In this document: positions 1 through 18,090 of the stretch, piece by piece
Layout: each line of letters opens with the position of its first letter
Position numbering within the stretch: the first letter of the stretch is position 1
NCBI GenBank assembly: GCA_004124295.1
Contig: SCKI01000006.1
Coordinates: forward strand, 1 to 64,000
Direction: 5' to 3'
From: Fidelibacterota bacterium
GTDB taxonomy: Bacteria; Fidelibacterota; Marinisomatia; SCGC-AAA003-L08; TS1B11
Length of the DNA: 64,000 nt
Notes under the pieces: generated by a model
Database searches by the model: none
Seen by the model: the letters and a program-made list of their open reading frames with translations, nothing else
Told to the model about the DNA's origin: nothing
Made by a program: the position numbers and the translations under genes

Positions 1-2
1 AG

Positions 3-410: not shown

Positions 411-465
411 TTTTCTTCTTGGTCCAAAGTAATCTGAGAATAGAGGCGTATATTACACCGAAAGA

Positions 466-1305: not shown

Positions 1306-1363
1306 CTAATGATGTAAGAAGGCTAATCGTAATGCGTTTGGAATGATTCTGATTATAGGGTAA

Positions 1364-2185: not shown

Positions 2186-2197
2186 AAAAAGCCAAAT

Positions 2198-2698: not shown

Positions 2699-2794
2699 TT
2701 AGAATGAGGTTCCTGGTAAGTCACATAAAGGAGTTTTTTCCAAAATCCAGGATGAGGTAATGAAGTCGATGGTTGAATAATAACTCCGATGCAG

Positions 2795-3511
2795 TCATTC
2801 TTTCTGCTTTAGCATTTTCGCACGCTGATAAATGTCGCTAGACACTTGCAGCCTGCATTCTCCCGGATCGAACACAATCTCAGGTGTACATGTGGGTAGC
2901 TCTCCAATCCAGTTCTCTATAAACCGATGGTCAACAGGTTCAAATGCAGGATCATCATAATCTATATCCAGCTTAGCATCATCCTCAGATAACCAATCAG
3001 AGAGGTCCGCTTTAAGACGCTCATCCTCCCCTTCGATGAGCTTCTGGATCCATTCTGTAGTTGTATCGCTAACTTCTCTTTGGGTTGATTTATTTTTGCT
3101 ACTATTGCCAGTCTCCACCAATCTCTCAATCCTATGGAAATAGTGGGCAAATTCATGAATTAGGATTCTTCTCAATAAAAGGTCATCGCAATATAGCAAT
3201 GTTGTTATTGGCAACTCAACAGCAAACTCGTAATGATCACCGAGATTGACAGGACCAGTCTTGCCATAGATAGATCCCTCCATATCCGGTCTAACCCATC
3301 CGTATGGCGCAAGATAGACTGGAGGCATACTGAGTTTTGCAGATTTCGAAATACTCTGGTGTATCCGCTTGAGTCGCGGAAGCTTATCTGTTTTTATTGT
3401 CTGACTGATATGCAAAGGAATCGCCTCCCACTCGGCTGTCTCGCCGGCGAGTCGAATCGGGATATCTTTATTTGTCCTTTTTCGAGGATTCTTTTTTTCT
3501 CGTTTTGCCAT
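2795..3511 (-). CDS. Putative HExxH metallopeptidase-like protein
   Basis: This is a 238-residue protein. HEFAHYFHRIER at residues 119-130 fits the HExxH zinc-binding helix of metallopeptidases. The helix is preceded by LLLRRILI, as in SprT/ImmA-like families. No signal peptide is present, and the N-terminus is basic (KREKKNPRKRTNK). The third zinc ligand is not obvious. The C-terminal half is acidic and lacks a recognisable domain. It stands alone between the decayed methylase and an empty stretch. An intracellular protease-like or regulatory role is possible, but no function can be assigned. Confidence 0.55.
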   Translation of the reverse strand: MAKREKKNPRKRTNKDIPIRLAGETAEWEAIPLHISQTIKTDKLPRLKRIHQSISKSAKLSMPPVYLAPYGWVRPDMEGSIYGKTGPVNLGDHYEFAVELPITTLLYCDDLLLRRILIHEFAHYFHRIERLVETGNSSKNKSTQREVSDTTTEWIQKLIEGEDERLKADLSDWLSEDDAKLDIDYDDPAFEPVDHRFIENWIGELPTCTPEIVFDPGECRLQVSSDIYQRAKMLKQKE

Positions 3512-3912
3512 TTCCGTGTCCTAAATTAAATGAGTGACGGCAATTTGCGATGTTTTTTCTAGTGGCATCAATAAGCGATTCACTGAAAATTATATTTTAG
3601 TAACACAATCCAACATGCCAAGAATTAAACATTAAATCTAACAAGAAAGCCCCCTCAACTCATTAAATACTGAGCCCCATGTTCAGGTGTGGCACTCTGC
3701 CTTTTCGATCAGGTTCCTCAATTTAGGATGACACGCCGGGCAGGAATGGGATTCTGGACTATCAAGCTAGCATGACCGCAGAGGCCGGGGATGATCCCAC
3801 TAGGGCCCTCACCGGAAGGTACCTGCAGGACTCAATCCTCCGTCATCACGCCTACCAGATCGACTTCGTGAACTTGAGCGACGCCAAGCAATCCTTGGCT
3901 TCTTAAGTTTGT
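3512..3912. other. Intergenic stretch with possible gene debris
   Basis: About 400 bp without a convincing gene. The left half is AT-rich. At 3771-3905 there is an open 44-codon plus-strand run starting with ATG that has protein-like composition but no family I know. It is in another frame from the SEC-C gene that follows. The stretch may be what remains of a longer gene. Confidence 0.35.
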
Positions 3913-4137
3913 ATGCGGACCAAGTATTGCAGGCAGGTCGCAAACGAACCGGAATGGGTTGCGATTCTGCCTGCCGCGGTGCGGGAGAAATACGAATTCT
4001 GGCTGCCGCTGCGTCGCGCAGAAGCCCAGGTATCTCAGGCTGCGTTTAGCCAGAAGGTCGGCCGGAATGAACCCTGTCCCTGTGGGAGTGGCAAAAAATA
4101 CAAGAAATGCCACGGTGCCCCGGAATCCCAGAGCTGA
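3913..4137 (+). CDS. SEC-C motif protein, small
   Basis: This 74-residue ORF ends in [20 protein letters not shown], a textbook SEC-C zinc-binding motif with the C-x-C...C-H ligands. The motif occurs at the end of SecA and of many small accessory proteins. The 50 residues before it resemble nothing I know. The protein may be the tail of a larger broken gene, because open but out-of-frame sequence lies just upstream. A 470-nt ORF on the opposite strand is judged a shadow because the SEC-C motif is so specific. Confidence 0.6.
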
Positions 4138-4266
4138 GTTCTCAGCCAGAAGAGCCCTGGAGGGCATGAAGTATCGCAAATTAGGATTAAGTTTATCCAA
4201 CGGAAACCACTTCAGCTCTATATTCTTCTCTGAAACCCGCGGGTTTACGGGGCAGCGTCTTGCGGG

Positions 4267-5025
4267 ATGTACAGATTGGGGAACGAATTGAACCCTGACC
4301 ATCTCTTACAACTCCATTTGGAGCTACATACTCTGGGTATCCTCGAAGGTTGCCTAGATCACAACCTATGCTCTGAATTGGACGAGGTATCCGAATACAA
4401 ATTTAATCGCCTCAAAGAGCAGTTTCCGCCACCTCCTAATAGACCGAATTTGCCAACTGAGATCAAAAAGGCTGAGACGGGGAAAAGATTTTATAAAGCA
4501 AATGCCTGGGAGAATTATCATCGGGCCTTGAAGAAATGGCATTTAGCTCCGATCATCAAGAGGCTGCGGAAAAATGAAAAAGAAATGTTGCGACTTAAAA
4601 CAACGATCCGCGATCAGGGAGAAAGCAGACTGCTTACAGAAGATCTGGAATACAACCGACTGTTGGGACAGACTATTGAAGCGTGGTGTCTCAACGAATA
4701 TCGCGAAGTACCGATAATTCAGTTGAAGAAGAGCGGCATTCGTCGGATCGACCAGTATCCTCATCTCCAAAAGCACAAATTGTCCTTCCCAGATTTAGCG
4801 AACGAGTTGATAAAAAAGGGTATCATCGAACGAAGCCGTATATACCCCAATGGAAAAAAACCCGGCGTCGAAGCGGAGGCAGATTACCTATTCCAAGCTT
4901 TTAAGAGGGCAGTTTACAGGCATGAAAACCATATGCGCGGGAAGGCCAGCATTGCTATGCGTCAGATGCCCTCTGATAATTCTGACAAACCCAAAATATT
5001 TTTAGTCTACGAGAAAAAGTCATGA
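4267..5025 (+). CDS. Hypothetical protein of the older island
   Basis: This is a 252-residue, charged, lysine-rich protein with a probable coiled or helical middle (residues 80-130). There is no signal peptide or membrane segment. I do not recognise the family. It precedes the winged-helix protein in the element's plus-strand cluster, separated by about 195 bp. The start is uncertain: ATG 4267 has no clear ribosome site. Its likely role is within the mobile element, not core metabolism, but this is inference from position only. Confidence 0.5.
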   Translation: MYRLGNELNPDHLLQLHLELHTLGILEGCLDHNLCSELDEVSEYKFNRLKEQFPPPPNRPNLPTEIKKAETGKRFYKANAWENYHRALKKWHLAPIIKRLRKNEKEMLRLKTTIRDQGESRLLTEDLEYNRLLGQTIEAWCLNEYREVPIIQLKKSGIRRIDQYPHLQKHKLSFPDLANELIKKGIIERSRIYPNGKKPGVEAEADYLFQAFKRAVYRHENHMRGKASIAMRQMPSDNSDKPKIFLVYEKKS

Positions 5026-5219
5026 GCTGATATTGCTTTTCCCAGCCTTTTCCGAACACTAACTCTCTCGTATCCGACCCTTTCCGATCTCTTTTCCGAG
5101 CATATTCCATATTTAGTATTTTCCCAAATGTCACCAGTCGTTTATTTGATTCCTGTTTGTTCACTACCACTGGATAAAACATACAGTGAGAACACAAACA
5201 AATTTGATCACCGCAAAGG

Positions 5220-6149
5220 ATGCGTATGGTAACTCACAAATTCTACTTCATTTTCCCCTCCGAGTGGCTATCAGCAAAAATCGTGAAGGCGCTTGGCCCG
5301 CGAATCTGGTTACTACTTTATTTTATGAACAAAGTCACTCATACAGCAGATGGGGTCGGCCTAGTCTTAGGTGGCCAACCGATGTCTTTCGAAGATATTT
5401 CAGCGGAACTCCAAGTACATCGCAATACGGTCGCCCGCCAATACGCCCATCTTGAAAAGTTTGGGTTTGTTGGATCAAAAAAAGTGTGGGGAGGGCCTCG
5501 TAAATTTTTCGTTATCGGATATTCAAAGTTTCCCAAAAGGAAGCAGTCGACCCAGGATGAAAAACGATTTGAATTCGCTTACTATATCTTACGAGAGCAA
5601 ATCAATTTATCGACTATTGAAAATGAGGACACCATTATAAATCCGAATTTTCAGGAAGTGTTGACCAATCTCTCATTAGATGATAGCGCGCCACCCCAAA
5701 AGGGTGATGAAGTCTCCAAGATTGAGACGCCGATTACCAATTCTGGTGCATCTATTACAAATAAGAAAGCTCGAGAAGAGTCCAGCATAAGAAAACGAAA
5801 AGGTAAAAAGAGAAAGAGAGAAATCCCCCCCACCTCAGGAAAGCCAAAAGAAGTGCCGGTAGAGGTGGCTCAGGTGTATGACAGGTATATGATATTGATG
5901 GGAAGTCGCAGTGAGAATCCTACTGCTCAGGAGACTCTTCTTATTAGAGAAGCTATAAAGGCTGAGGGGTTAGATAAAATGTTGACTTGCATTGAAAATT
6001 ATCGCAAGCGATTGAATGATAGGAAAACCTGGACAGTCTTGTCGGTGGAAAAATTCTTTCAGATTAAAACATATTCAAGGTTTCTAAGGACCGACCACAC
6101 TCAAACCGCCGAGCGCAAAAAACTAAGGCCGCTAAAGGAGTTTGAATAG
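5220..6149 (+). CDS. Winged-helix replication/regulatory-like protein
   Basis: This is a 309-residue protein. The N-terminal part (about residues 50-100) contains SFEDISAELQVHRNTVARQY followed by LEKFGFV, a good helix-turn-helix or winged-helix unit. The N-terminus resembles replication-initiator or phage-type DNA-binding proteins. A lysine- and arginine-rich linker (residues 180-210) is followed by a C-terminal helical region. ATG at 5220 has an AAAGGA ribosome site just upstream. It lies ahead of the Xis/RHH/integrase module, so a role in element replication or regulation is likely. A precise family is not visible. Confidence 0.55.
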   Translation: MRMVTHKFYFIFPSEWLSAKIVKALGPRIWLLLYFMNKVTHTADGVGLVLGGQPMSFEDISAELQVHRNTVARQYAHLEKFGFVGSKKVWGGPRKFFVIGYSKFPKRKQSTQDEKRFEFAYYILREQINLSTIENEDTIINPNFQEVLTNLSLDDSAPPQKGDEVSKIETPITNSGASITNKKAREESSIRKRKGKKRKREIPPTSGKPKEVPVEVAQVYDRYMILMGSRSENPTAQETLLIREAIKAEGLDKMLTCIENYRKRLNDRKTWTVLSVEKFFQIKTYSRFLRTDHTQTAERKKLRPLKEFE

Positions 6150-6301
6150 TGAGGCATTCCCAAGCGTGGCTACTAGCGCGTACGGGCCATAATTGAATTT
6201 CTTAATATGATGGGTGTTCGATATACTTCAACAGGATTTGCATCACCGGGTCAGGGGATAGTAGCCCGGATGATGATGACCTCGTCTTCTGATCAATTCT
6301 A

Positions 6302-6544
6302 ATGAAGGCCGTTCATAAATATTGCCCCTACTGCAGCCAACCGGGAGAGCGGTACTACTCACCGGAAACCTTGGCCGCCATCCTTGACTGCTCAATTAAG
6401 ACGGTGCGCGGCTGGATCAATGACAAGAGTATCGGCAGCGTGAAGGTTGGCGGTTTGCGGCGCATCTCGGCAGGGCAACTTGAGGCGTTTATTAAGGATG
6501 TGCCGTCATTCGAGCAGTTGGCAGAAGAGGCGATGGAGGGATAA
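6302..6544 (+). CDS. Excisionase-like MerR/HTH protein with zinc knuckle (older island)
   Basis: This 80-residue protein has two parts. Residues 6-14 contain CPYCSQPGE, a small zinc-knuckle-like pair of cysteines. Residues 18-65 form a HTH_17 excisionase-type domain: YYSPETLAAILDCSIKTVRG followed by VGGLRRIS. Such proteins control excision or the expression of tyrosine integrases. It is followed by a ribbon-helix-helix gene and the integrase. The second island carries a sister gene at 16355 with the same layout, so the two islands belong to one element family. Confidence 0.8.
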   Translation: MKAVHKYCPYCSQPGERYYSPETLAAILDCSIKTVRGWINDKSIGSVKVGGLRRISAGQLEAFIKDVPSFEQLAEEAMEG

Positions 6545-6582
6545 GCATTGAATGCGGACTATAAATACATTACATTTACTGT

Positions 6583-6786
6583 ATGCCGAGGCGAAAACTT
6601 GAAAAGGGTAAGAACCGTAGCATTCGACTGCCCGTCCGTCTTTGGGATATGATAGATAATGAAGCTGAGTCAGACGGTGTTTATAGTAACAACCTGATAT
6701 GGCGCATGGTAGAGGAATTTTTAGTTAAGCGCGGGAGACTTAATGAGAAGGACCGCAAGCGCCCACCGATTGATCAAGGGAAATGA
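6583..6786 (+). CDS. Ribbon-helix-helix-like small DNA-binding protein
   Basis: This is a 67-residue basic protein. NRSIRLPVRLWDMIDNEAES (about residues 11-30) reads as the beta-strand and first helix of a ribbon-helix-helix fold, followed by a second helix up to residue 50. Such proteins usually act as repressors or as accessory factors of mobile elements. Its stop overlaps the start of the integrase by 4 bp (ATGA), so the two are probably translationally coupled. The second island has no equivalent gene. Confidence 0.6.
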   Translation: MPRRKLEKGKNRSIRLPVRLWDMIDNEAESDGVYSNNLIWRMVEEFLVKRGRLNEKDRKRPPIDQGK

Positions 6787-7980
6787 TGGAAACGAGGAAA
6801 CGTTACCGATACACCGGCATCCGACCAGGTAAAACACCTGGCACGTGGAACATTGATTTCTACGACTGGAAAGGTGGCAGGCACCAGAAAACCTTCCACG
6901 GCACAGAGACGGATGCGGCCAAAGTGCGGCGCGAAATCCTTGTTAAGCAGGACAAGATCAGGAATGGTCTTGAGGCCCCGCCAGAGCCCAAGATCAAGGT
7001 TATCACATTTAACATGTTAGTGGGTGGCCTTTGAGGCTGATAGACGGCTTAAAATTGATTCTGGCAGCATGAGCGAAGCATCCTTGCGCAGAGTCCGTTA
7101 CACCTATAAGGCTCTACTGGAATACGACAAGCAGATCAAAGCCCGGCAGCTGGACGAGATTGGGTCTGCCGACTTTGAGGCATTCAAAATCTACCGGCAG
7201 GAAAAGGGATTCGCTCCCGAAGGCATCAACACGAATCTGCGCGGCTTGCGGACCTTGTTCAATTTCGCGGTGGCTCAAGGCTTCATTGAAAAGTCGCCGC
7301 TTAAAGGTGTCCTGTTGGTCAAGGTCGCACGCTCAGACGTGCGCTACCTGAATGAGGACGAGCTGCGGAGCCTCTACTTTGCCATTGACCATATTGACAC
7401 ATCGGACAAGTATCAATGCGATGCGAGAGACTTGACGCTATTCTACCTGCTCACCGGCTGCCGGGCCAGCGAGGCTCTATACCCCAACTTCACTTGGGCC
7501 AACAACGGACAGGATGCTCTGCACTTCTACCAGTCAAAGACATCCAGTGCCCGTAGCATCCCCAAGGGTGAACAGATAAAGGAAGTGTTAGAACGGCGAA
7601 AGCATGAAGACGGCGGACCTTTCCACTTCGATAACTTTACAGTCTATAGTAGAGTGACCTGGCTGTTCAAAAAGGCCGGGATAGAGAACGCCTCACCGCA
7701 TACACTCCGTAAGACAGCCGGTAGCCTTTACTACCTGGCCACCCGCGACATTTTCGCCACCAGTCGCTTCCTGGGACACTCCAGCGTGAGTGTAACAGAA
7801 AAGCACTACGCTGGATTGATCCAAAGCCTACAGATTGAAAACTACCAGAAGTTTGAAGAAGTGGTCAAACCCGATTCGCTATATATTCGCTATTCTGCCG
7901 GTAATAGTGGGCAATCACCGGTAATTGGACCGAAAACAGAGAGCCCCGCTTCTCGACGGAAACAAGGGCCTCTCCCTCTC

Positions 7981-8023
7981 GTGACTCGGGTGGGACTCGA
8001 ACCCACGGCCAATGGCTTAAAAG
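7981..8023. repeat. att site: displaced tRNA-Lys 3' part
   Basis: A 43-bp exact copy of 17951-17993, covering the T-arm, variable region and anticodon arm of tRNA-Lys as far as the loop. Sequence after position 8023 departs from the tRNA, so crossover lay in the anticodon arm. Confidence 0.9.
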
Positions 8024-8073
8024 AACAGAGTCTGTTCGTCGGAAAAAAGAAAAGAGAGACAAGAAAGGGTGAC
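8007..8073 (+). repeat. Element-end repeat, inverted copy at 57767-57833
   Basis: This 67-bp block starts with 17 bp of tRNA-Lys anticodon arm and continues into the left end of island 2. Its reverse complement occurs at 57767-57833 with three mismatches by my alignment. It marks the terminus of a family of elements. Confidence 0.85.
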
Positions 8074-8103
8074 AGTTGGGATTATTAAGGCTGAATGTTC
8101 GAT

Positions 8104-8760
8104 TCAGCACTTGCCAAAAATCTGGCCGTTATGATAATCTACGTACTCGCTTCCAATTCCCTCCAACTGTACTTTTTCCAATTTAATGGCCCCATAGTCC
8201 AACAGAACATGATCATTGGGACAGACACATAAAATATTCTCGATGACATCAGGTCCATTGTGTGGCGCACCCAAGGGCTTGATGTGGTGTGCTTCGGCAT
8301 AGGGCTTCCCATCGCCAATCTCGAAGCGAATTCCACAAATCTGACATTGATAACGACGCCTCGCTTTGATCATGCGTGCTAGCCTGGTATCCCTGAGAAT
8401 ACGATAGGTTTCCTGGTTTACTCGTTGGGGGTGATCATGGTCCCGAATATCTGAGGCAATCGGTGTTGGGCCCGGCGAGGAATGATGATCGTCCGCTTCA
8501 TTCTCAATTAGAAGAAAGCTGCCATTTTGAAGTTTCTTGAAATATGTACTCCCACGATATTTCGCAGGATAGTCTGGGCAATGTGTATGGATTACTTGGC
8601 GTGCCGTATTTCGGTAACTCTTCCTGTGCTTGTATGGCGAGTAGTGATTCTTCCGGTTCTTGTCAAGTTGAGCTAGAATCTCTACCCACGGCGCTTCGCC
8701 CCCGAGTTCCCCTAGGGCCTGCTTTACATGTTCTAATGTGACTGGCCCAAGTTTTTCCAT
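8104..8760 (-). CDS. HNH endonuclease
   Basis: This is a 218-residue protein. The C-terminal 85 residues are an HNH nuclease: CQICG (C139/C142), AEAHHIKPLG (H158/H159), then PHNGPD and NILCVCPNDHVLLDYG (C178/C180/H184). These supply the zinc and catalytic ligands. The N-terminal half is a basic alpha-rich region that probably recognises DNA. The layout matches stand-alone HNH restriction enzymes. ATG 8760 is the only sensible start. It sits at the left end of island 2, divergent from the methyltransferase operon about 1 kb away. It may be the restriction partner of that methyltransferase, but this is inference. Confidence 0.85.
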   Translation of the reverse strand: MEKLGPVTLEHVKQALGELGGEAPWVEILAQLDKNRKNHYSPYKHRKSYRNTARQVIHTHCPDYPAKYRGSTYFKKLQNGSFLLIENEADDHHSSPGPTPIASDIRDHDHPQRVNQETYRILRDTRLARMIKARRRYQCQICGIRFEIGDGKPYAEAHHIKPLGAPHNGPDVIENILCVCPNDHVLLDYGAIKLEKVQLEGIGSEYVDYHNGQIFGKC

Positions 8761-9791: not shown

Positions 9792-10853
9792 TTGATTGGC
9801 GTTGAACTATTTGCCGGTGCTGGTGGCATGTCGTTGGGTGCCCAGCAAGCTGGGATTGATGTAAAACTGGCTGTGGAGATCGACCCACATGCAGCTGCTA
9901 CCTACCATTGCAATCACCCGGAGGTTCGACTTCTTACGCAGGACATTAGGGATATATCACTTGCCGATCTTCCTACCACCACCGATTCAACTATCTTGTT
10001 TGGCGGACCACCTTGTCAGGGTTTCTCAACGTCCAACCAACGTACCAGGAATAAAGAAAACAGCAACAATTGGCTTTTCGCTGAATTCTTGCGGATTACC
10101 AAAATTTGGAAACCGAATTGGGTGGTTTTTGAAAACGTTAGGGGAATCGTTGATACTGAAGGGGGAATGATTCTTGCCAAGGTCAAAGCGGGCTTTGAGA
10201 AGCATGGCTACACCTTGACGGAATGGATATTGAATGCTGCCGATTATGGAGTCCCCCAAAGACGCTCCAGATATTTCCTCATTGGATCACGCGATGGCAT
10301 TCAGGTACTTAAACCCTTGCCAACCACCGCAAAGCCAATATCGGTTGGAGAGGCAATAGGTGATCTCCCACGCTTGACAAGTGGCACACTCAAGGAACAG
10401 TTGCCCTATCGAAGCAAGGCTGTCTCCTGCTATGCAAGTGAATTGAGAAACGGGAGTAAATACTCCCTGAATAATCTGGTTACAAAAAATTCAGCCCTGG
10501 TATTGGAACGATACAACCATATCCCTCAAGGGGGCAATTGGCAGGACATACCCGCCGAATTAATGAGTTCGTACACAGATGCATCCCGATGCCACACGGG
10601 TATATACCATCGCCTTCAAAATAAAACGGAATCTGTCGTGCTTGGAAACTATCGAAAAAACATGTTAGTACATCCGACTCAAAACAGGGGACTATCAGTT
10701 AGGGAGGCGGCGAGACTACAATCCTTTCCTGACTATTTCGAGTTCAAAGGATCAATTGGATATCAGCAGCAACAGGTAGGAAATGCTGTACCGCCATTAC
10801 TTGCTCATGCGGTTTTTACTTCCATAATAGTCTCTGCCGGATTATCCGACTAA
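9792..10853 (+). CDS. DNA (cytosine-5-)-methyltransferase
   Basis: This 353-residue C5 methyltransferase transfers a methyl group from S-adenosylmethionine to cytosine in a specific DNA sequence. All main motifs are visible: I FAGAGGMSLG (7-16), IV GGPPCQGFS with catalytic C75, VI ENVRG (114-118) and VIII QRRSRYF (156-162). A target-recognition region spans about 190-280. Motif IX is RGLSVREAARLQSFP and motif X is QVGNAVPP. The length is normal and the gene looks intact. It starts at TTG with a purine-rich ribosome site and ends in TAATG, shared with the next gene's ATG. It heads the six-gene operon of island 2. No restriction enzyme is in the operon itself; the divergent HNH gene is a candidate. 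Confidence 0.93.
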   Translation: MIGVELFAGAGGMSLGAQQAGIDVKLAVEIDPHAAATYHCNHPEVRLLTQDIRDISLADLPTTTDSTILFGGPPCQGFSTSNQRTRNKENSNNWLFAEFLRITKIWKPNWVVFENVRGIVDTEGGMILAKVKAGFEKHGYTLTEWILNAADYGVPQRRSRYFLIGSRDGIQVLKPLPTTAKPISVGEAIGDLPRLTSGTLKEQLPYRSKAVSCYASELRNGSKYSLNNLVTKNSALVLERYNHIPQGGNWQDIPAELMSSYTDASRCHTGIYHRLQNKTESVVLGNYRKNMLVHPTQNRGLSVREAARLQSFPDYFEFKGSIGYQQQQVGNAVPPLLAHAVFTSIIVSAGLSD

Positions 10854-11950
10854 TGTGGGGAACACAAAAAATAATTGAAGATAAAGCAGAAGAAAAATTG
10901 GCGACCGATTTTGCCGATGGCAGGGGCAAAACAATATTCGGTTATTATCTGGCTGCACGCGATAAAATAATTAGTGAGATTGCTCCTGAAATCAAGGCCA
11001 GAGAACCAGGACTAACAGATCACGGGCCAGAACATATTGAGGATGTTCTAACCCGGGTAGGGTTATTGCTCGGCGAGACAATGGATGATATGAGTGGTAC
11101 AAACCTTTACTTGTTAATTGTCTCTATATTATTTCATGATGTAGGGAATGTATATGGTCGGGAAGATCATAATCAGGTAGTGGGTCCAATTTATGACCAA
11201 GTTCGAATTCCCTCTAACCCGCCATCCTTAGAGCAACTACAAGAAAGATTACTAGTCTTAAAAATCTGTAGGGCTCACTCTGGGAAAGGAGAGGACAAAA
11301 GCAACAATACCTTAAGGTTCTTAGATAAGACTGAACCGCTATTTAATAATGAACCTGCTAAGGTACAAGAGATCGCGGCGATTCTAAGATTTGCTGATGA
11401 GCTCTCGGAGGGGGAGCAAAGAACATCATCATTTGCTCTTCAAGATAATTTCTATGATGATGCTACCAAAGTGTACCATCAATATGCGCTATTCAGTAAG
11501 GTTACTATTGACAGGGAGTTAAAAAGAATCGCCCTGACATATATAATTCCGATTAGTAAGAAAAAACCTGAGAAACCTGGCAAATTAACAACCGCGGATT
11601 TGTCCCAATTCTTACCCTTTGTTTATCATCGCATCTTAAAACTTGATCAAGAGCGCAGATATGCTCGTCACTATGCGCGAAAATATCTCGAACCATATGA
11701 AAGAACAACCATTACAATAAAATTCGTGGATGAAGAAAATAACGAGATCGCCGGTGTGAGTGATGGAAATGGAGCGACCAATTTGGAATTAACTGATTTG
11801 GTGGTGCCAGGAGATATTGAAAAATCATTCATTCAACACTACCCGAGCTATGACCCAAAATCAATAATAAAACAGCTCAATAAGAGACTTCGGCGCTCCT
11901 CGCAACATAAGCCAACCGTTTTTGAGAAACTGTTTGGGGGAGATAAATGA
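10853..11950 (+). CDS. HD-domain protein (HD-CE-like)
   Basis: This 365-residue cytosolic protein has an HD phosphohydrolase-type metal site: LTDHGPEHI (H57/H61), LFHDVGN (H95 D96), RAHSG (H142) and FADELSEGEQR (D182). The pattern resembles the HD domains found in conflict systems and in Hsp90-linked operons. The C-terminal 150 residues are basic and lack a domain I know. It may cleave a nucleotide or phosphodiester. Its start shares a base with the methyltransferase stop, and its own stop overlaps the ATPase start by 4 bp, so the three are probably translated as a unit. Confidence 0.8.
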   Translation: MWGTQKIIEDKAEEKLATDFADGRGKTIFGYYLAARDKIISEIAPEIKAREPGLTDHGPEHIEDVLTRVGLLLGETMDDMSGTNLYLLIVSILFHDVGNVYGREDHNQVVGPIYDQVRIPSNPPSLEQLQERLLVLKICRAHSGKGEDKSNNTLRFLDKTEPLFNNEPAKVQEIAAILRFADELSEGEQRTSSFALQDNFYDDATKVYHQYALFSKVTIDRELKRIALTYIIPISKKKPEKPGKLTTADLSQFLPFVYHRILKLDQERRYARHYARKYLEPYERTTITIKFVDEENNEIAGVSDGNGATNLELTDLVVPGDIEKSFIQHYPSYDPKSIIKQLNKRLRRSSQHKPTVFEKLFGGDK

Positions 11951-13701
11951 CTGATTATGTGAATCCGTTTGAATATGAAGCTGCGAGCAAATTGTCATCT
12001 AGCCAGATGAATCACTACTACATTGACCAATTCAACTATAGTCGTTTTGTAAAGTCAAAGAGGAATATATTTTTAGTGGGGGAACGTGGCTCAGGAAAGT
12101 CGATGATATTAATGTATTACTCAGTACCTGTGTCGCTGGAACGTGTTTCCGGTGATGCTAAATTGGTTGTGGATGATGGAATTTTACCAATTTATGTTAC
12201 TTGTAATACACCCTTGGCATTTAAAAACGAATATGATTTGTTAGAGGGTATTTTACCTGCGCTTCTTGCTGAGCACTATTTCGTGGTATCAATGATGTAT
12301 GCGCTAGCAGATGAACTAAAGATGATTCGAGAACTTTTTACAGCCGCCGAGATGGAGAAGGTAAAACATGATTATGAATATATTTTTGATAAAAAGCTAC
12401 CAGACAGCGAGGATGTATTTAGTTCAATACAACTAATGCTCCAAAAAGCCAACGTAGAGGTACAGTCTATTATCAACCGCGGTGACGAAGGGAGAGGTCT
12501 AAGTTGGTTGTTCGGATTCAATAGCGGGATGCTGCAGCTTATGGCAATCGCCACAAAAACGAAAGCATTGGAAGGAATCCATTTTTCTCTGATGATAGAT
12601 GATGCGCACTTATTAACTGAGCACCAAATCCGCCTTCTAAATTCTTGGGTTTCCTTCCGGGATAACACTTCATTCAGTTTTAAGGTGGCAAAAACTAAAG
12701 TTGACAGGACCACGGCTGTTACTGCTACGGGTAGTTCTATTCTCGAAGGACATGATTATACCGAGATAGATCTTGAGGCGGCTTATCAAAATAAATCTTC
12801 TGAATTCGGCAAGTACGCCCGATTAATATTGGAAAAGAGATTAGAGACTATTGGTCTCAAGGGCATCGACTTAAATAAATTTTTCCCAGAGCACCCACAA
12901 TTTGTCAAGGATTTGGAAAAGGCGAAATTGAAAGCAAAAAAGGAGGCGGAAGAGAAATATAGCGGGCAGGAAAATAGCGAGAAAAAGATTGATGGCTATA
13001 TCTATAAGATGGCGAGGGCCTTTTATTTTCGAGATCGGGGTGCTACAGCAAATATTCCTCCGGCCTATGCAGGGTTAGAGACTATAATTGAAATGTCTAC
13101 AGGAATAGTGCGGAATTTACTCCACCCGTGTTACTACATGTATGAAAACCAATATTCGATCCTTCAGGGAAAAGGTGGAAATCAATCTCCATTGGTAAAA
13201 TTCATCGAGCCGAAAGTCCAGTATGAGAGCATTAAGAAAAGAAGCAAGAAAGCCTGGGTGGACTTAAAAGAATCTCTCTCTCTCACCGTGGAAGGATGCA
13301 CTATGGATGAGGCTTTGCAGACTTATCAAATGATGGATCATTTGACAAATCTTTTTCAGAAACGGCTGTTGACACATAAATCAGAGCCTCGCGCGATAAG
13401 TTTCACTATCTCTGATACCACTAGTGATGTATACCCAACCGTCATTAGGTGGGTAAATATTGCCCGAAAGGCGCAGCTAATGTACGCGTATCTCAGCTCG
13501 GCGAAGGATAAAGGCCAGAGGGAAATGTATTTCGTACCCAACAGAATACTATGCCTCCAAAAAGGACTTGACCCTAGAGGACAACATGCTCGTGTCTCCT
13601 TAACAGCTAAAGTATTATTTGATGCGGGGATGCTTAACAAAAAAATTCCTTACGATTCAGAACAGGAGGGGGACGGTGGACTCGACTTCTTCTCTGGGTG
13701 A
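11947..13701 (+). CDS. ORC/CDC6-like AAA ATPase
   Basis: This 584-residue P-loop ATPase begins with NPFEYEAASKLSS, typical of ORC-CDC6-family ATPases in bacterial accessory operons. It has Walker A GERGSGKS (45-52) and Walker B FSLMIDDAHLL (about 213-223). A charged, lysine-rich helical segment (about 310-345) and a C-terminal winged or alpha region follow. The protein probably uses ATP to switch or load a nucleic-acid-associated complex. It overlaps the HD gene by 4 bp (ATGA) and the next gene by 26 bp. The pairing of an HD protein with such an ATPase recurs in island operons, which suggests they act together; that is inference from family context. Confidence 0.8.
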   Translation: MTDYVNPFEYEAASKLSSSQMNHYYIDQFNYSRFVKSKRNIFLVGERGSGKSMILMYYSVPVSLERVSGDAKLVVDDGILPIYVTCNTPLAFKNEYDLLEGILPALLAEHYFVVSMMYALADELKMIRELFTAAEMEKVKHDYEYIFDKKLPDSEDVFSSIQLMLQKANVEVQSIINRGDEGRGLSWLFGFNSGMLQLMAIATKTKALEGIHFSLMIDDAHLLTEHQIRLLNSWVSFRDNTSFSFKVAKTKVDRTTAVTATGSSILEGHDYTEIDLEAAYQNKSSEFGKYARLILEKRLETIGLKGIDLNKFFPEHPQFVKDLEKAKLKAKKEAEEKYSGQENSEKKIDGYIYKMARAFYFRDRGATANIPPAYAGLETIIEMSTGIVRNLLHPCYYMYENQYSILQGKGGNQSPLVKFIEPKVQYESIKKRSKKAWVDLKESLSLTVEGCTMDEALQTYQMMDHLTNLFQKRLLTHKSEPRAISFTISDTTSDVYPTVIRWVNIARKAQLMYAYLSSAKDKGQREMYFVPNRILCLQKGLDPRGQHARVSLTAKVLFDAGMLNKKIPYDSEQEGDGGLDFFSG

Positions 13702-14578
13702 GGTGGATGCATTAATTACTGTTGCTAGCTGGGAAGAACGATTCACCAAAGGCTTCAACAATTTAGTGAGATCAAAAAAACCTACTCGTGTACTAGCATT
13801 CTATTTTGAGGAATATTATAAGTGGTCTGAGCAGAATGTGGAGGGAGCAAAGATACTTTGTGAATCATTAGGAGTGGCAATCGAAACAGTTGCTCTATCA
13901 ATGAGCGAGCCTGGTTCTACTTGGAAAAAATTGAATGATTGGGTTATGTCAATTCCAGCAGATACTAAAGAATTATGCCTAGATATTACCACTATGCCGA
14001 GAGAAACTATTTGGGAATTACTGTATATAATAAAGCAACGATTGCGAAATGTGCATGTGACCTATACCTACTATAAGCCTGGAAACTATGGCGATTGGTT
14101 AAGTGCGGAGCCCGGCCGCCCTAGGCTTGTATACAGAATGAGCGGTATTATCAAACTTGGCACACCCACAACGCTTCTCATCTTGACTGGTTTTGACGTA
14201 GATCGAACAAAGCGATTGGTACGAATGTATGAGCCACAGCAGGTCATCTTGGGCCTGCAGATTGGTGAACAATTTGGGAATGAAGTGAAAAATATAAAGA
14301 AACATAAAGAAGCATTTACCCGAGATAAAAAAATAATTATGTTCGAGGGAAATCAATATGATCCAAATGAAATAAAAAGCAAAATAGTGGATGAGCTGAC
14401 GCCATTTAAAAATACCAATATTGTACTGAGTAGCCTCGGGCCAAAACCCGGCGCGATAGGCATCTACAAGGCGTATGTTTCTAATCCAGAACTCGCAATT
14501 TCATATGCACCTTCAGGCCAATACAACAAAGAGTACTCAGAAGGTCTCGGCGATTTATTTGAGGGTGAAGTAACTTGA
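13676..14578 (+). CDS. Unrecognised Rossmann-like protein of the operon
   Basis: This is a 300-residue protein. I choose GTG 13676 because AGGAGG lies seven bases upstream; longer in-frame starts run deep into the ATPase gene. Residues 10-45 give a beta-alpha-beta start (VDALITVASWEERFTKGFNN). CLDITTMPRE (101-110) and the late SLGPKPGAIG followed by ISYAPSGQYNKEY are striking and probably conserved. The layout of alternating strands with a TMPR loop recalls CARF-like ligand-sensing domains, but I cannot assign a family. It overlaps the ATPase by 26 bp and ThyX by 4 bp. A sensor or effector role is an inference. Confidence 0.65.
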   Translation: MDSTSSLGEVDALITVASWEERFTKGFNNLVRSKKPTRVLAFYFEEYYKWSEQNVEGAKILCESLGVAIETVALSMSEPGSTWKKLNDWVMSIPADTKELCLDITTMPRETIWELLYIIKQRLRNVHVTYTYYKPGNYGDWLSAEPGRPRLVYRMSGIIKLGTPTTLLILTGFDVDRTKRLVRMYEPQQVILGLQIGEQFGNEVKNIKKHKEAFTRDKKIIMFEGNQYDPNEIKSKIVDELTPFKNTNIVLSSLGPKPGAIGIYKAYVSNPELAISYAPSGQYNKEYSEGLGDLFEGEVT

Positions 14579-15459
14579 CTCTGCCCGAAAAAGAACTCCG
14601 TGTCTCTACCGCTGGGTATGTCAGAGTTGTCGATGTCATGGGCGATGACTCTTCCATCGTCCAAGCTGCTAGGGTCTCCTACGGTAAAGGTACGAAGAAA
14701 ATCAGCGAGGACCGCGGCCTGATTAGATACCTCATGCGCCATCGGCATACGACCCCTTTCGAGATGTGCGAATTGAAACTGCTTGTACGGGTCCCGATGG
14801 ATACTTGGAGGCAGTGGATAAGACATAGGACCGCAAGCGTGAATGAGTATTCGACTAGATACTCAATCGCTATTGATGATAAGGCAAAAACTGATCCTGA
14901 TAAATGGAGAGAACAGGCAGAAATAATTAAGCAGGGTAGCGGTGGTTACTTGGATAGCGAAGTTGGGGAGAGATTGACTGCGGCAGAGGCAAAACTACAT
15001 CAACACGCGCAAGAGGTTTATGATGAACGGATTGAGGCCGGGGTAGCCAGGGAACAGGCTAGAAAGGATTTGCCACTGTCCACCTATACAGAAGCCTACT
15101 GGAAGATTGACCTCCATAATTTACTGCATTTCCTTGAGCTCCGCATGAACCCTCGCGCCCAATGGGAGATACGGCAGTACGCCAATATAATTGGCCATGA
15201 GATCGTAGCCAATTGGGTACCACTCACTTGGGAAGCTTTCTTAGACTATAGATTGAATGCCACCCATTTAACTGCCATCGACAAAGAGGTTATAACAAGA
15301 ATTAATAGCGGTGAGGAAGGGGCAGCCGAATCGTATCTTCGAGATATTGGTCTCCTTAAAGATGGGAAGACGGGATTCAAGAAGAACCGGGAACGGGACG
15401 AGCTAGAGGAAAAATTGCAAGATTTAGGATATAATATACCCTGGTCAACCCCCGATTAA
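14575..15459 (+). CDS. thyX: Flavin-dependent thymidylate synthase
   Basis: This 294-residue protein contains the ThyX signature RHRTASVNEYSTRY (83-96), which fits the RHRx7S motif that binds FAD and dUMP. The second half has LRMNPRAQWEIRQYA, the usual C-terminal ThyX helix. ThyX methylates dUMP to dTMP using methylene-tetrahydrofolate and NADPH. The protein is about 50 residues longer than many ThyX enzymes because of a basic, acidic-tipped C-terminal tail. It starts at TTG, overlapping the previous stop by 4 bp, and is followed after 2 bp by another gene. A thymidylate synthase coupled to a DNA methyltransferase, HD protein and ATPase in an integrative island is unusual. Confidence 0.9.
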   Translation: MTLPEKELRVSTAGYVRVVDVMGDDSSIVQAARVSYGKGTKKISEDRGLIRYLMRHRHTTPFEMCELKLLVRVPMDTWRQWIRHRTASVNEYSTRYSIAIDDKAKTDPDKWREQAEIIKQGSGGYLDSEVGERLTAAEAKLHQHAQEVYDERIEAGVAREQARKDLPLSTYTEAYWKIDLHNLLHFLELRMNPRAQWEIRQYANIIGHEIVANWVPLTWEAFLDYRLNATHLTAIDKEVITRINSGEEGAAESYLRDIGLLKDGKTGFKKNRERDELEEKLQDLGYNIPWSTPD

Positions 15460-15461
15460 AT

Positions 15462-16271
15462 TTGTTAAAACCCGACTTCTACTTCCTCACCGAATCCGTC
15501 TCCCTTGAATCCCAGCAACTAATCCAGCGCGGGATTAGTCTGGACTTAGACCATCCAATGTTCGAATACAAGGGCGCGTACACTGGTGAAAAGCATTTTG
15601 CCTGGGCAGACCTTCGGCGGCGACGGTGCCGGAAGCGCGGATGGCTGGCGAAAGATATCCACGATTACGGGGCGGATATAAAAATGGCCTTAAAGGAGCA
15701 TTTATCATTTCCACCGGAAATTATGGAAATAGTCTGGGATAAAACCGATTCGCCGACGGGAACACCACTCAATCAAATCGAAATAAATGAGAAACAATCT
15801 GCAATTATATCCCTGGAAATTCAATTACCGGCACTTTCCTGGCTCCACGAAAATGAATTAATTCGAATTGCCGCCCTGCAAAAAGAATTGCACCCGGACA
15901 GAGAGAATCCCGACGGGAAAATATTGTGGGATCATGCTGTGTTCTGTCAGAGAATTATTACCGGGTGGTTTATTCGGAATAAAATCCCCCCGCCGTTAAT
16001 TGATTACCCCGAATTAAAACTAACTGACTGGGATCGCTTCTGTTTACTGGTGGAAGAGGCGGTGAGAATAAAGTCGCCGTCAGACGAGCAGCTGAAAAGG
16101 TGGAGGGACGCTTTCGATGAGTTTCCCCCAAGCTATTTTCCACGGTATGAGAAAAGACTTAAGAAAGAAAAAAAGCCAAGCCTCTTGCAAGGACCTGATT
16201 CCGGGAACGCCTTGGAGTGGCGTAAGAATCCCAAGTTTCGTCTCAAGCGTGGAACAAAATCGAAGCAGTAG
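15462..16271 (+). CDS. Hypothetical protein, last gene of the operon
   Basis: This is a 269-residue soluble protein with no recognised domain. It is rich in tryptophan and charged residues; the C-terminus (about 235-269) is strongly basic. The TTG start at 15462 is 2 bp after the ThyX stop, so it is probably part of the same transcript. Codon and base usage match the operon. Segments such as FAWADLRRRRCRKRGWL may contact nucleic acid. I find no catalytic motif. Its position makes it a candidate component of the system, or simply a passenger. Confidence 0.55.
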   Translation: MLKPDFYFLTESVSLESQQLIQRGISLDLDHPMFEYKGAYTGEKHFAWADLRRRRCRKRGWLAKDIHDYGADIKMALKEHLSFPPEIMEIVWDKTDSPTGTPLNQIEINEKQSAIISLEIQLPALSWLHENELIRIAALQKELHPDRENPDGKILWDHAVFCQRIITGWFIRNKIPPPLIDYPELKLTDWDRFCLLVEEAVRIKSPSDEQLKRWRDAFDEFPPSYFPRYEKRLKKEKKPSLLQGPDSGNALEWRKNPKFRLKRGTKSKQ

Positions 16272-16354: not shown

Positions 16355-16609
16355 ATGCGAAACAATGGTCAAATGGCCTCGATCCCTCAGAAATATTGCC
16401 CAACGTGTGGTAGCGCACAGGAACGCTTTTTAAATATTGCTACTATGGCAAAAGTATTCGATTTCACTGAGGAGGCAGTTAGGGCCATGATCAAACGGAG
16501 ACAAATCCCATTCTTCAAGTTGGGAAGTCGCGTAAGGTTCTGCTATTCAGAGGTACGAGCCTGCCTGGTGCGGTATCCTTCCATTAATGAGGTGTCCCTT
16601 GATTACTGA
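16355..16609 (+). CDS. Excisionase-like HTH protein with zinc knuckle (island 2)
   Basis: This 84-residue protein is a sister of the one at 6302. It has a cysteine pair, KYCPTCGSAQERF (residues 13-25), followed by an HTH_17-type DNA-binding domain: NIATMAKVFDFTEEAVRAMI and FFKLGSRVRF. It probably directs excision or regulates the integrase located 32 bp downstream. ATG 16355 is chosen; an internal ATG at residue 7 is also possible. Confidence 0.8.
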   Translation: MRNNGQMASIPQKYCPTCGSAQERFLNIATMAKVFDFTEEAVRAMIKRRQIPFFKLGSRVRFCYSEVRACLVRYPSINEVSLDY

Positions 16610-16641: not shown

Positions 16642-18090
16642 ATGCCCAAGCCTAGAGCCATACGACCCCTTTACTCCAAGAAGCCCAACAAGAACGTCTA
16701 CAAGTATTGGGACCCGAAGACCGGCAAACATACCAAAGTTTCTGGATTTCAGTTAGACCTTTGGGACAGCCAATCCCAAACCCGAATACGGAAAGTCATC
16801 AAGGCAGATTTGGAGGCCGCCAAAGCCGCCTATGATCAGCTGGAGGGACTTATTCAAGATGCCAATGTGTCCGTTCCAACACTCATCAAACGAAGTAAGG
16901 TGCGTACTCTGGGCGATCTGTATCGCAAGTATGAGAAGGCCAGCAAGTCGGATGCGCCCCAGGAGCGACGGCGGAAGAGGTCGCCCCTAACGGTTAAGCG
17001 CAAGGGCTATGCCGTAAGAACCTTCCAGACCACCTTGGGGCGGGACCCGGAGCTAAAGTCGCTCCGGCCCGCTGCCATAGAGCGGTTTATTCAGATTCGC
17101 ATTGATGGCGGCTATAAGGAAGGTGGCATCAATACCGACCTTCGCTCGTTGAAGGCCCTTTTTAATTGGGCCTTGAAGCGCGACCTGATTACCGCCAATC
17201 CGTTTGCAAAGATTGATATGTTTCCGGTTGAAAGGGATGAACCAAGGCCCCTATCGCCAACTGAGCTAAAGCGGCTATTCCACCATAACCCGCCCGGAAG
17301 CCGGTGGTATCCCCTGCTAATGACTTACCTCCTGACCGGGGCCAGGTTATCCGAAATCCTGAAACCGAAGTTCTCCTGGTCCGACATTGATTTTGAGAAT
17401 GAGACCTTCACCTTGCCCATGCGGAAAGGCCGGAAGTCTACCGAATTCCCCCTGGACCAGGTCTTGCTTGAAATATTTCGGGATTTGAAACGCAGGCCCA
17501 TTTATAAGGACATCCGGCACCGTAAGGCCGATGACCAAGACTACCCGTTTCCGTTTAACGCTCACTTCATCAGCCACAAGGTAAAGGCGCTCCTGGAGGC
17601 TGCCGGAATAACGGCCACTGCTCATGACCTCCGGGATTCCTTTGTAAGTCACCTGATCGATTTAGGGTACCCTATAGAGGAGGTAAGCAAGCTGGCGGGA
17701 CATACAAATACCAAGATTACCGAACAATATTACTATGGTCTTATAGAGGGAAAACGGAGACAAATGTTGGCCGATTTGGGCAGGCACATTGTTACAGTCT
17801 CGACGGGAGAAACAATCTCGACACCCGTAAAAATAGTGACAGAAACCGATGACATAGACCGCCCAAGTATGACCGATGCTGACCTATTTTTTGAAATGGT
17901 CGAAGAGGCAGAAAAGGCCGCTTCACGACGGAAAAAGCGGCCTTTAGAGGGTGACTCGGGTGGGACTCGAACCCACGGCCAATGGCTTAAAAGGCCACTG
18001 CTCTACCATCTGAGCTACCGAGTCGCTGTGCGCCATGTGGGACTCGAACCTACAACCTTCGGCTTAAGAGGCCGCTGCTCTACCAATTGA
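16642..18090 (+). CDS. Tyrosine recombinase (integrase) of island 2
   Basis: This is a tyrosine-family site-specific recombinase, open for 482 codons. The N-terminal arm-binding part is basic. A core-binding helix region spans about 85-185. The catalytic set is LTGARLSEIL (arginine near 234), KGRKSTEFPL, HDLRDSF (about 328), AGHTNTKI (about 352) and the tyrosine of YYYG (about 363). It integrates and excises the element at tRNA-Lys. The last 45 or so codons read antisense through tRNA-Lys(UUU) and most of tRNA-Lys(CUU). They encode VGLEPTTFGLR, a common artefact of tRNA antisense reading. Whether the protein really uses those codons is uncertain, but no earlier in-frame stop exists. Confidence 0.9.
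   Translation: MPKPRAIRPLYSKKPNKNVYKYWDPKTGKHTKVSGFQLDLWDSQSQTRIRKVIKADLEAAKAAYDQLEGLIQDANVSVPTLIKRSKVRTLGDLYRKYEKASKSDAPQERRRKRSPLTVKRKGYAVRTFQTTLGRDPELKSLRPAAIERFIQIRIDGGYKEGGINTDLRSLKALFNWALKRDLITANPFAKIDMFPVERDEPRPLSPTELKRLFHHNPPGSRWYPLLMTYLLTGARLSEILKPKFSWSDIDFENETFTLPMRKGRKSTEFPLDQVLLEIFRDLKRRPIYKDIRHRKADDQDYPFPFNAHFISHKVKALLEAAGITATAHDLRDSFVSHLIDLGYPIEEVSKLAGHTNTKITEQYYYGLIEGKRRQMLADLGRHIVTVSTGETISTPVKIVTETDDIDRPSMTDADLFFEMVEEAEKAASRRKKRPLEGDSGGTRTHGQWLKRPLLYHLSYRVAVRHVGLEPTTFGLRGRCSTN
17951..17993. repeat. att site: right direct repeat within tRNA-Lys
   Basis: A 43-bp exact copy of 7981-8023. All but the first base lie within the intact tRNA-Lys(UUU) gene, so the element regenerates a full tRNA at its integrase end. 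Confidence 0.9.
17952..18024 (-). tRNA. tRNA-Lys (anticodon UUU)
   Basis: A 73-nt cloverleaf on the minus strand. The acceptor stem pairs GACTCGG with CCGAGTC. The D-arm is GCTC/GAGC. The anticodon stem GTGGC/GCCAT encloses loop CTTTTAA, giving anticodon TTT. The T-arm is GTGGG/CCCAC with a TTCGAGT loop. The discriminator is A, and CCA is not encoded. It is the integration target of the islands to its left and is intact. Confidence 0.95.

What the first reader, a model, noticed from the sequence alone, without database searches (positions are those of the whole stretch)
9792..16271. Six-gene overlapping operon: C5 methyltransferase, HD protein, ORC/CDC6 ATPase, unknown, ThyX, unknown
Seen: the junctions are 1-bp, 4-bp, 26-bp and 4-bp overlaps and a 2-bp gap, so the genes are almost certainly one translated unit, and the unit is the main cargo of a tRNA-borne island. 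Known: C5 methyltransferases, HD-CE-type proteins and ORC/CDC6 ATPases are each found in bacterial conflict systems. Inference: this set with a thymidylate synthase does not match a restriction-modification, BREX, DISARM or CBASS layout I know. It may be a new anti-phage or DNA-modification system.
Basis: partly seen in the sequence, partly recalled or inferred. Interest (0 to 1): 0.9.

Follow-up and report, generated by a model that had tools for sequence, protein, structure and literature searches.

The report
CARF-HD-ATPase defence cassette with ThyX
A mobile island carries a recurring set of genes that looks like a bacterial anti-virus system which attacks nucleotides, and it is repeatedly accompanied by an enzyme that makes a DNA building block, so a metabolic enzyme may be a working part of an immune system.

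Summary
In detail: six same-strand genes at 9792-16271 with 1-, 4-, 26- and 4-bp overlaps and a 2-bp gap, the main cargo of a 10-kb tRNA-Lys island bounded by an exact 43-bp repeat. The first "unknown" is a tandem CARF-domain protein of the CARF6 group (PADLOC E 1e-38; confident model). The core order C5 methyltransferase, HD-CE, ORC-CDC6-like ATPase, CARF6 recurs in all five relatives of this type found. It belongs to a wider modular family whose second gene is HD, PRTase, kinase or metallophosphoesterase. ThyX accompanies the cassette in 12 of 25 loci (11 of 24 without a near-identical copy), in three ThyX lineages and with all four effector types, which argues against simple hitchhiking. 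The last gene is lineage-specific and probably a passenger. HD-CE, PRTase-CE and ORC-CDC6-like are existing Pfam families and CARF6 exists in PADLOC, so the core is probably already catalogued computationally; the searches I made showed no account of the ThyX link, but the likeliest source papers were not readable. Most likely function: modification-guided, CARF-gated nucleotide-depletion defence, with ThyX protecting or tuning the dTMP pool. Defence activity is inferred, not shown.

The parts
7981..8023 (.). attL-like 43-bp direct repeat, left end of the island
   Evidence: Exact copy of 17951-17993
9792..10853 (+). Gene 1: DNA cytosine-5 methyltransferase, 353 aa, TTG start behind GGGGGAGAA
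   Evidence: PF00145 1.1e-66, TIGR00675 6.3e-61; GPPCQ, ENV and QRRSR motifs present (motif names recalled)
10853..11950 (+). Gene 2: HD-CE protein, predicted nucleotide-attacking effector, 365 aa
   Evidence: PF24391 80.9 bits, cut-off 27; H57, H61, H95, D96, H106, H142, D182 invariant in the 6 aligned HD proteins
11947..13701 (+). Gene 3: ORC-CDC6-like AAA+ ATPase, 584 aa
   Evidence: PF24389 283 bits, cut-off 27; Walker A GERGSGKS, Walker B LMIDDAH
13676..14578 (+). Gene 4: CARF6-like protein with two CARF-like halves, about 300 aa from GTG 13676
   Evidence: PDLC01917 9.6e-39; model pLDDT 82, pTM 0.84; fold matches to Can1, Cam1, Csm6, Csa3
14575..15459 (+). Gene 5: ThyX, FAD-dependent thymidylate synthase, 294 aa, motif RHRTASVNEYSTRY
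   Evidence: PF02511 2.5e-51, TIGR02170 5.2e-55; motif; beside the cassette in 12 of 25 loci
15462..16271 (+). Gene 6: lineage-specific protein of unknown function, 269 aa; probably a passenger
   Evidence: No family over cut-off; matched in 5 of 245 genomes of the phylum, this one included, with a second copy in this genome behind a Fic gene; not in the other cassettes
16355..16609 (+). Excisionase-like HTH_17 protein of the island
   Evidence: PF12728 6.7e-6, 0.3 bit under the cut-off
16642..18090 (+). Tyrosine integrase of the island; its 3' end overlaps the tRNA-Lys genes on the other strand
   Evidence: PF00589 6.9e-20; tRNA positions
17951..17993 (.). attR-like 43-bp repeat inside tRNA-Lys(TTT) 17950-18024
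   Evidence: Exact copy of 7981-8023

Best explanation
This is a mobile, modular nucleotide-targeting defence cassette. The methyltransferase marks host DNA (inferred from intact motifs). The ORC-CDC6-like ATPase and the tandem-CARF protein form the surveillance and switching unit: the ATPase assembles on unmodified or replicating foreign DNA, and the CARF pair gates activation, either by binding a nucleotide ligand or as a protein adaptor (inferred; the operon has no cyclase). When released, the HD enzyme hydrolyses nucleotides and stops phage replication, at a cost to the cell (inferred from the HD-CE family and from its swap for PRTase, kinase or metallophosphoesterase at the same place). 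ThyX supplies extra dTMP, most likely as an accessory that offsets or tunes the nucleotide depletion so that the host recovers before the phage. Shown: gene content, order, recurrence, effector swapping, repeated ThyX linkage, intact catalytic motifs, CARF-like fold of a model. Not shown: any activity.
For: Core order kept in 6 of 6 HD-type loci including the window. Of 13 relatives found by an ATPase query alone, 13 have CARF6 directly downstream and HD or PRTase directly upstream (85, 94). Effector slot over 25 loci: HD 6, PRTase-CE 17, kinase 1, metallophosphoesterase 1 (the HD of L026 and L027 by my own HMM only). PADLOC model PDLC01925, one chain of kinase, AAA and CARF6, matches L037's three separate proteins, so these three probably work together. 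ThyX accompanies 12 of 25; the ATPase tree needs 6 changes of ThyX state, at least 5 forced by well supported branches. The window ThyX groups with that of Bradyrhizobium quebecense (100/100, 98/100) although its ATPase groups with L001 (100/100). Carriers: an island, plasmids, and 8 contigs filed as viral.
Against: No phage or enzyme data. ThyX is missing from the closest core relative L001 and from 13 of 25 loci, so it is optional. CARF proteins are best known as sensors of cyclic oligoadenylate, yet no cyclase is in the operon and no Csm1/Cmr2-type Cas10 in the genome. The lowest Foldseek E-values for gene 4 went to transporter domains (TM about 0.3), not to CARF proteins. The HD model is weak (pLDDT 64) with no significant match. 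In some rhizobial plasmids ThyX sits in an integration hot spot near a RHE_PE00001 gene (L026, L039, L048, L050), which could explain part of the linkage. ThyX also sits by a different candidate defence pair, PDC-M65, in three plasmids, so it is not specific to this cassette. Gains and losses of ThyX cannot be told apart on the tree.
Confidence: 0.5

Rival explanations
1. Core as above, but ThyX is part of the trigger rather than an antidote: it raises or drains dTMP/dUMP so that the switch reads thymidine nucleotides, in the way that Clover's dGTPase is activated by dTTP.
For: Clover abstract and passages: CloA is an HD-superfamily dGTPase switched on by raised dTTP (PMC12265719). ThyX accompanies four chemically different effectors, fitting a role on the sensing side.
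Against: No CloB-like nucleotidyltransferase among the six proteins; 13 of 25 cassettes lack ThyX and cannot depend on it.
Confidence: 0.2
2. ThyX is a passenger of integration hot spots: mobile elements of ThyX-using hosts collect thyX and defence genes side by side with no functional link.
For: ThyX also lies by PDC-M65 in L048, L049, L051; RHE_PE00001 and an integrase or recombinase nearby in L026, L039, L048, L050; in L040 a 98-aa gene lies between ThyX and CARF6; 4 of 4 fetched ThyX of plasmids outside Hyphomicrobiales have no cassette.
Against: Next to the cassette with nothing between in 11 of 12 loci, in varying positions and orientations; in the window overlapped with the CARF gene; three ThyX lineages, L058's being at most 26% identical to the others.
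Confidence: 0.2
3. A type II restriction-modification relative in which a nuclease is supplied elsewhere (for example the HNH protein at 8104-8760) and the rest are accessories.
For: C5 methyltransferase with intact motifs; HNH protein in the same island with a weak match to a phosphorothioate-DNA endonuclease, 41.5 bits against a cut-off of 180.
Against: HNH lies apart on the other strand; effector, ATPase and CARF are the constant part while the methyltransferase class changes and is not found upstream in some loci.
Confidence: 0.08

Closest known systems
Nucleotide-targeting conflict-effector (CE) systems: HD-CE, PRTase-CE, Calcineurin-CE (Nicastro et al. 2023, gkad879; seen only as a citation, content recalled)
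   Same: Pfam HD-CE (window) and PRTase-CE (17 loci) occupy the same slot beside the Pfam ORC-CDC6-like ATPase; L050 has a calcineurin-like phosphoesterase (PF00149) there.
   Different: I could not read the paper, so whether this layout or the ThyX link is described there is unknown.
CARF6 proteins of PADLOC (models seen between PDLC01910 and PDLC01925), incl. CARF6--CARF_STK_AAA
   Same: Gene 4 matches PDLC01917 at 9.6e-39; CARF6 models match 20 of the 25 downstream proteins, the other 5 were not scanned; the fusion model joins kinase, ORC-like AAA and CARF6 in one chain.
   Different: Here three separate genes, HD in place of kinase, plus methyltransferase and ThyX.
Can1 (type III CRISPR CARF nuclease, PDB 6sce)
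   Same: Highest query TM-score (0.52) of the 50 Foldseek rows shown; two CARF domains in one chain (recalled).
   Different: Gene 4 has no nuclease domain; no Csm1/Cmr2 in the genome.
Clover (CloA/CloB)
   Same: HD-superfamily nucleotide effector under control of thymidine nucleotides.
   Different: No CloB nucleotidyltransferase; extra ATPase, CARF and methyltransferase.
BREX and BREX-related systems
   Same: Methyltransferase plus an ORC/Cdc6-clade ATPase.
   Different: No PglZ, BrxA, BrxB or BrxX among the six proteins; small C5 methyltransferase; CARF and HD instead.
DefensePredictor system with a thymidylate synthase (PMC13092281; section 5 and passages read)
   Same: A thymidylate synthase in a validated anti-phage operon.
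   Different: The main text holds no 'CARF', 'ORC' or 'HD domain' by word search; supplementary tables were not seen, so overlap is not excluded.

Membership tests
HD-CE effector | Pfam PF24391 over its cut-off | tested here: met
   80.9 bits against 27
HD-CE effector | Metal-binding HD residues kept | tested here: met
   H57, H61, H95-D96, H106, H142, D182 invariant in the 6 aligned proteins
HD-CE effector | Hydrolyses nucleotides | not testable with these tools
   Needs an enzyme assay
ORC-CDC6-like ATPase | PF24389 over cut-off and Walker A | tested here: met
   283 bits against 27; Walker A in 13 of 13 ATPases checked, Walker B found by my pattern in 6 of 13, the window among them
CARF superfamily (CARF6) | Profile match and CARF Rossmann-like fold | tested here: met
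   PDLC01917 9.6e-39; model pTM 0.84; Can1 TMq 0.52, Cam1 TMt 0.58-0.60, Csa3, Csm6; the lowest E-values went to transporter domains with TM about 0.3
CARF superfamily (CARF6) | Binds a cyclic oligonucleotide | not testable with these tools
   No cyclase among the six proteins
Type III CRISPR signalling | Cas10 in the genome | tested here: not met
   Csm1 and Cmr2 models: 0 matches in this genome, 92.6% complete
CBASS | CD-NTase gene in the operon | tested here: not met
   No such family in the six proteins
Type II restriction-modification | Cognate restriction endonuclease in the operon | tested here: not met
   None of the six; only an HNH gene on the other strand of the island
BREX / DISARM | PglZ, BrxC-type ATPase, or DrmA/DrmB helicase set in the operon | tested here: not met
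   Not among the six proteins; DrmMII and DruM models match gene 1 as cytosine methylases
Clover | CloB nucleotidyltransferase partner | tested here: not met
   No nucleotidyltransferase among the six
ThyX | PF02511/TIGR02170 and RHRxxSxNExSxRY motif | tested here: met
   174.6 and 186.2 bits; RHRTASVNEYSTRY
Nicastro CE systems | The published operon layouts | not testable with these tools
   Paper not held

The most novel reading that the evidence does not exclude
ThyX is a recurrently recruited component of nucleotide-targeting bacterial immunity: a de novo dTMP synthase that works as a metabolic antidote or set-point control for HD, PRTase, kinase and phosphoesterase effectors gated by a CARF-ATPase switch, in a system with no cyclase, so that the CARF pair senses a nucleotide other than cyclic oligoadenylate, possibly a thymidine nucleotide.
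Probability: 0.27. Interest if true: 0.85.

Novelty: new variant of a known kind. Interest (0 to 1): 0.62.

Why it matters
If right, it links a housekeeping route (dTMP synthesis) to a CARF-gated immune switch, and gives a testable case of CARF sensing without a cyclase. It also shows one switch (ORC-CDC6-like ATPase plus CARF6) with four interchangeable effectors, on plasmids of rhizobia and enterobacteria as well as in an unnamed lineage, so the family is broad and tractable in laboratory strains.

Tried and rejected
Relatives in the window's own phylum: PF24389 passed its cut-off in 2 of 150 relatives, the window and a P-loop-only match of 27.1 bits; the ATPase alignment matched 1 of 245 genomes at E 1e-8, the window itself. 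Phage records: window ATPase 0 matches; L041 ATPase 2 partial, weak ones; gene 6 none. Viral contigs: the HD-type ATPase alignment gave none, the PRTase-type gave 8 loci, two single-protein repeats gave only the queries back. E. coli genomes: the Klebsiella-type cassette in 4 of 5426, strains named C600 and J53. Solved structures by sequence: none for the ATPase or HD alignments at E 0.01. HD fold search: nothing at E 0.001. Empty island site: the gene right of the tRNA was found in G003, but the 15 kb fetched there hold no tRNA-Lys, so no empty site is shown. Considered and dropped: gene 6 as a system part; CBASS, type III CRISPR, BREX, plain RM (see membership test). Literature; I saw listings (15 of 37 papers) and passages or sections of PMC12839542, PMC10853773, PMC12265719, PMC13092281 and PMC12548924 only. 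None of what I saw puts ORC-CDC6-like, CARF6 and ThyX together, but the two papers most likely to describe the core (CARF classification 2020, Nicastro 2023) are not held, so absence from print is not shown.
Full report
What is there. They encode a C5 DNA methyltransferase (PF00145 1.1e-66), an HD-CE protein (PF24391 1.6e-22), an ORC-CDC6-like ATPase (PF24389 5.3e-84), a protein with no Pfam family, ThyX (PF02511 2.5e-51) and a second protein with no family. Gene 4 starts at GTG 13676 behind AGGAGGGGG. PADLOC places gene 4 in the CARF6 group (PDLC01917, 9.6e-39; the 9 models matched are all CARF6). A ten-sequence alignment gave a good model (pLDDT 82, pTM 0.84) with two Rossmann-like halves. 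In Foldseek the lowest E-values went to transporter cytoplasmic domains at TM about 0.3. Of the 50 rows shown the best whole-model fit was Can1 (6sce, TMq 0.52), and single halves fit Cam1 (TMt 0.58-0.60), Csa3 and Csm6 CARF domains.

The island. An exact 43-bp repeat, 7981-8023 and 17951-17993, the second copy inside tRNA-Lys(TTT), bounds 10.0 kb. Inside are an HNH gene, a lipoprotein-like ORF (by eye), the operon, an HTH_17 excisionase-like gene and a tyrosine integrase whose end runs over the tRNA pair. GC is 40-48% over the operon and mostly about 60% to the right of the tRNA genes. The ATPase alignment matches 1 of 245 genomes of the phylum, the window's own. An empty site was not found.

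Recurrence of the core. Searches with ATPases found five HD-type relatives: L001 (gammaproteobacterial MAG), L025 (Yoonia plasmid), L026 (Agrobacterium salinitolerans plasmid), L027 (Rhizobium leguminosarum WSM2304 plasmid) and a 19-kb Spirosoma plasmid (L028 plus L030). All five have methyltransferase, HD, ATPase, CARF6 in that order and on one strand. HD is confirmed by Pfam in 4 of the 6 (L026 and L027 by my own HMM and alignment), CARF6 by PADLOC in 6 of 6. Identity to the window ATPase is 42% (L001) and 22-24% (others), so the order is kept over great divergence.

A modular family. A search with the window ThyX, then with a PRTase-type CARF6 and ATPases, led to a wider set. My own HMM annotation, Pfam and PADLOC give 25 loci with ATPase followed by CARF6: window, L001, L025-L027, L028/30, L037, L039-L047, L050, L055-L062. 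L039 and L047 are 99.9% identical over 6.5 kb, so 24 are distinct. The gene before the ATPase is HD in 6, PRTase-CE in 17 (16 by Pfam PF24390, L047 as the copy of L039), a kinase in 1 (L037, PF00069 8.5e-7, under its cut-off) and a metallophosphoesterase in 1 (L050, PF00149 4.2e-11). CARF6 is confirmed by PADLOC in 20 of 25; L047, L055-L057 and L062 rest on my HMM. HD goes with C5 methyltransferases (6 of 6); 13 of 17 PRTase cassettes have an N4/N6-type gene upstream. Selection: 13 of the 25 were found by an ATPase query alone (L001, L025-L027, L028/30, L055-L062); in those, CARF6 follows in 13 and HD or PRTase precedes in 13. The rest, besides the window, were reached through CARF6 or ThyX. 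PADLOC's PDLC01925, a kinase-AAA-CARF6 fusion, matches the three separate L037 proteins.

ThyX. ThyX accompanies the cassette in 12 of 25 loci (11 of 24 distinct): window, L026, L027, L037, L039-L041, L045-L047, L050, L058. In 11 it is the next gene; in L040 a 98-aa gene lies between. Five of these (L037, L039-L041, L050) were fetched from ThyX hits. Counting only ATPase-found relatives it is 3 of 13. For one search (CARF6 query from L041) it is 6 of 8 among the first nine rows, L041 itself included and one row not fetched, and 0 of 1 enterobacterial record examined of 139. Read the other way, 14 of the rows listed are Hyphomicrobiales plasmid ThyX; 13 were fetched: 10 adjoin this cassette and 3 (L048, L049, L051) adjoin a pair that PADLOC calls PDC-M65A/B (L048 tested; the other two by my HMM). 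Four other plasmid ThyX (L038, L052-L054) have no cassette. One search listed 60 of 236 records; the rest were not examined. The position varies: after CARF6 on the same strand (window, L037, L050, L058), convergent with it (L026, L027, L040), or before the methyltransferase (L039, L041, L045-L047). The window and L037 ThyX are sisters (62% identity; 100/100 with a long-branch warning, 98/100), although their ATPases are not sisters. L058 has a shorter ThyX (207 aa, PF02511 3.2e-54, RHRIASYSQESTRY) at most 26% identical to the others and on a very long branch, a third lineage whose exact place is unsure. On the ATPase tree (22 rows; L039, L046, L047 dropped) ThyX needs 6 changes, 5 forced by strong branches; the label is not clustered (108 of 500 shuffles as low), which fits repeated recruitment or loss. 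In the 17 ThyX the motif region reads RHR..(S/N).NE.S.RY.

The host. The genome (92.6% complete) has no ThyA match; its only other Thy1-family protein is a 534-aa double-domain one without the canonical motif. So the island brings a second, classical ThyX. No Csm1 or Cmr2 match.

How it may work. Recalled: CE domains are predicted to degrade nucleotides; a BREX paper says that such effectors deplete NTP pools (PMC12839542, passages). ORC/Cdc6 ATPases are predicted to form rings on DNA in conflict systems (PMC10853773, passages). Inference: methyltransferase marks self, ATPase plus CARF form the switch, HD stops replication, ThyX restores or sets dTMP. Clover offers a precedent for HD effectors controlled by thymidine nucleotides (PMC12265719, abstract and passages). 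A thymidylate synthase has been validated in another anti-phage operon (PMC13092281, section 5 and passages). Against: ThyX is optional; hot-spot sharing (RHE_PE00001 near an integrase or recombinase in L026, L039, L048, L050) may explain part of it; no cyclase is known for the CARF.

Novelty. The family names in Pfam and PADLOC show that the parts, and probably the core, were catalogued before; the likely source papers are not held. In the listings and passages that I saw the repeated ThyX link does not appear. I file it as a new variant of a known kind.

Gene 6. It matches in 5 of 245 genomes of the phylum, this one included and some matches weak, with a second copy in this genome just behind a Fic gene, and in none of the other cassettes by HMM. 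I treat it as a passenger.

Noticed in passing
window 1-8088: A second, tandem island seems to lie to the left: integrase in two frames (6783-7034, 7024-8088), an HTH-like ORF at 6302 (by eye) and cargo further left.
   Followed up: partly
window 8104-8760 (-): HNH endonuclease in the island (PF01844 2.3e-7), weakly like the phosphorothioate-DNA restriction enzyme model (41.5 bits, cut-off 180).
   Followed up: partly
window 2198-2593 (-): ORF that reads like the C-terminal piece of an N4/N6 DNA methyltransferase (LDPFMGLGT), apparently a remnant; by eye, no family search.
   Followed up: no
L048, L049, L051: ThyX followed by a PDC-M65A/B-like pair, a different candidate defence system, on three Rhizobiaceae plasmids.
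   Followed up: partly
L001 1007-15900: The cassette sits inside a locus with a helicase-like ORF (by eye), a DUF1156 methyltransferase (PF06634 2.8e-22) and AAA-like ORFs, and is flanked by two similar DUF1156-gene stretches (ORFs 4948-5766 and 10746-13790, by eye), as if inserted with a duplication.
   Followed up: no
L044: A methyltransferase-PRTase-ORC-CARF6 cassette on a Klebsiella plasmid; 128 Klebsiella records match by CARF6, one examined. Three of its genes are annotated as hypothetical or not at all.
   Followed up: partly
G000:C7:75346-76719 (L023, L024): Host Thy1-family protein is a 534-aa double-domain protein lacking the canonical ThyX motif, in a genome without a ThyA match.
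   Followed up: partly
G000:C1:379718-380443 (L036): Gene 6 paralogue directly behind a SoFic-like Fic adenylyltransferase gene.
   Followed up: partly
L046 5214-9005; L039 and L047: The ATPase gene is in three pieces with gaps in L046 and in two ORFs in L039 and L047, so these copies may be inactive.
   Followed up: no
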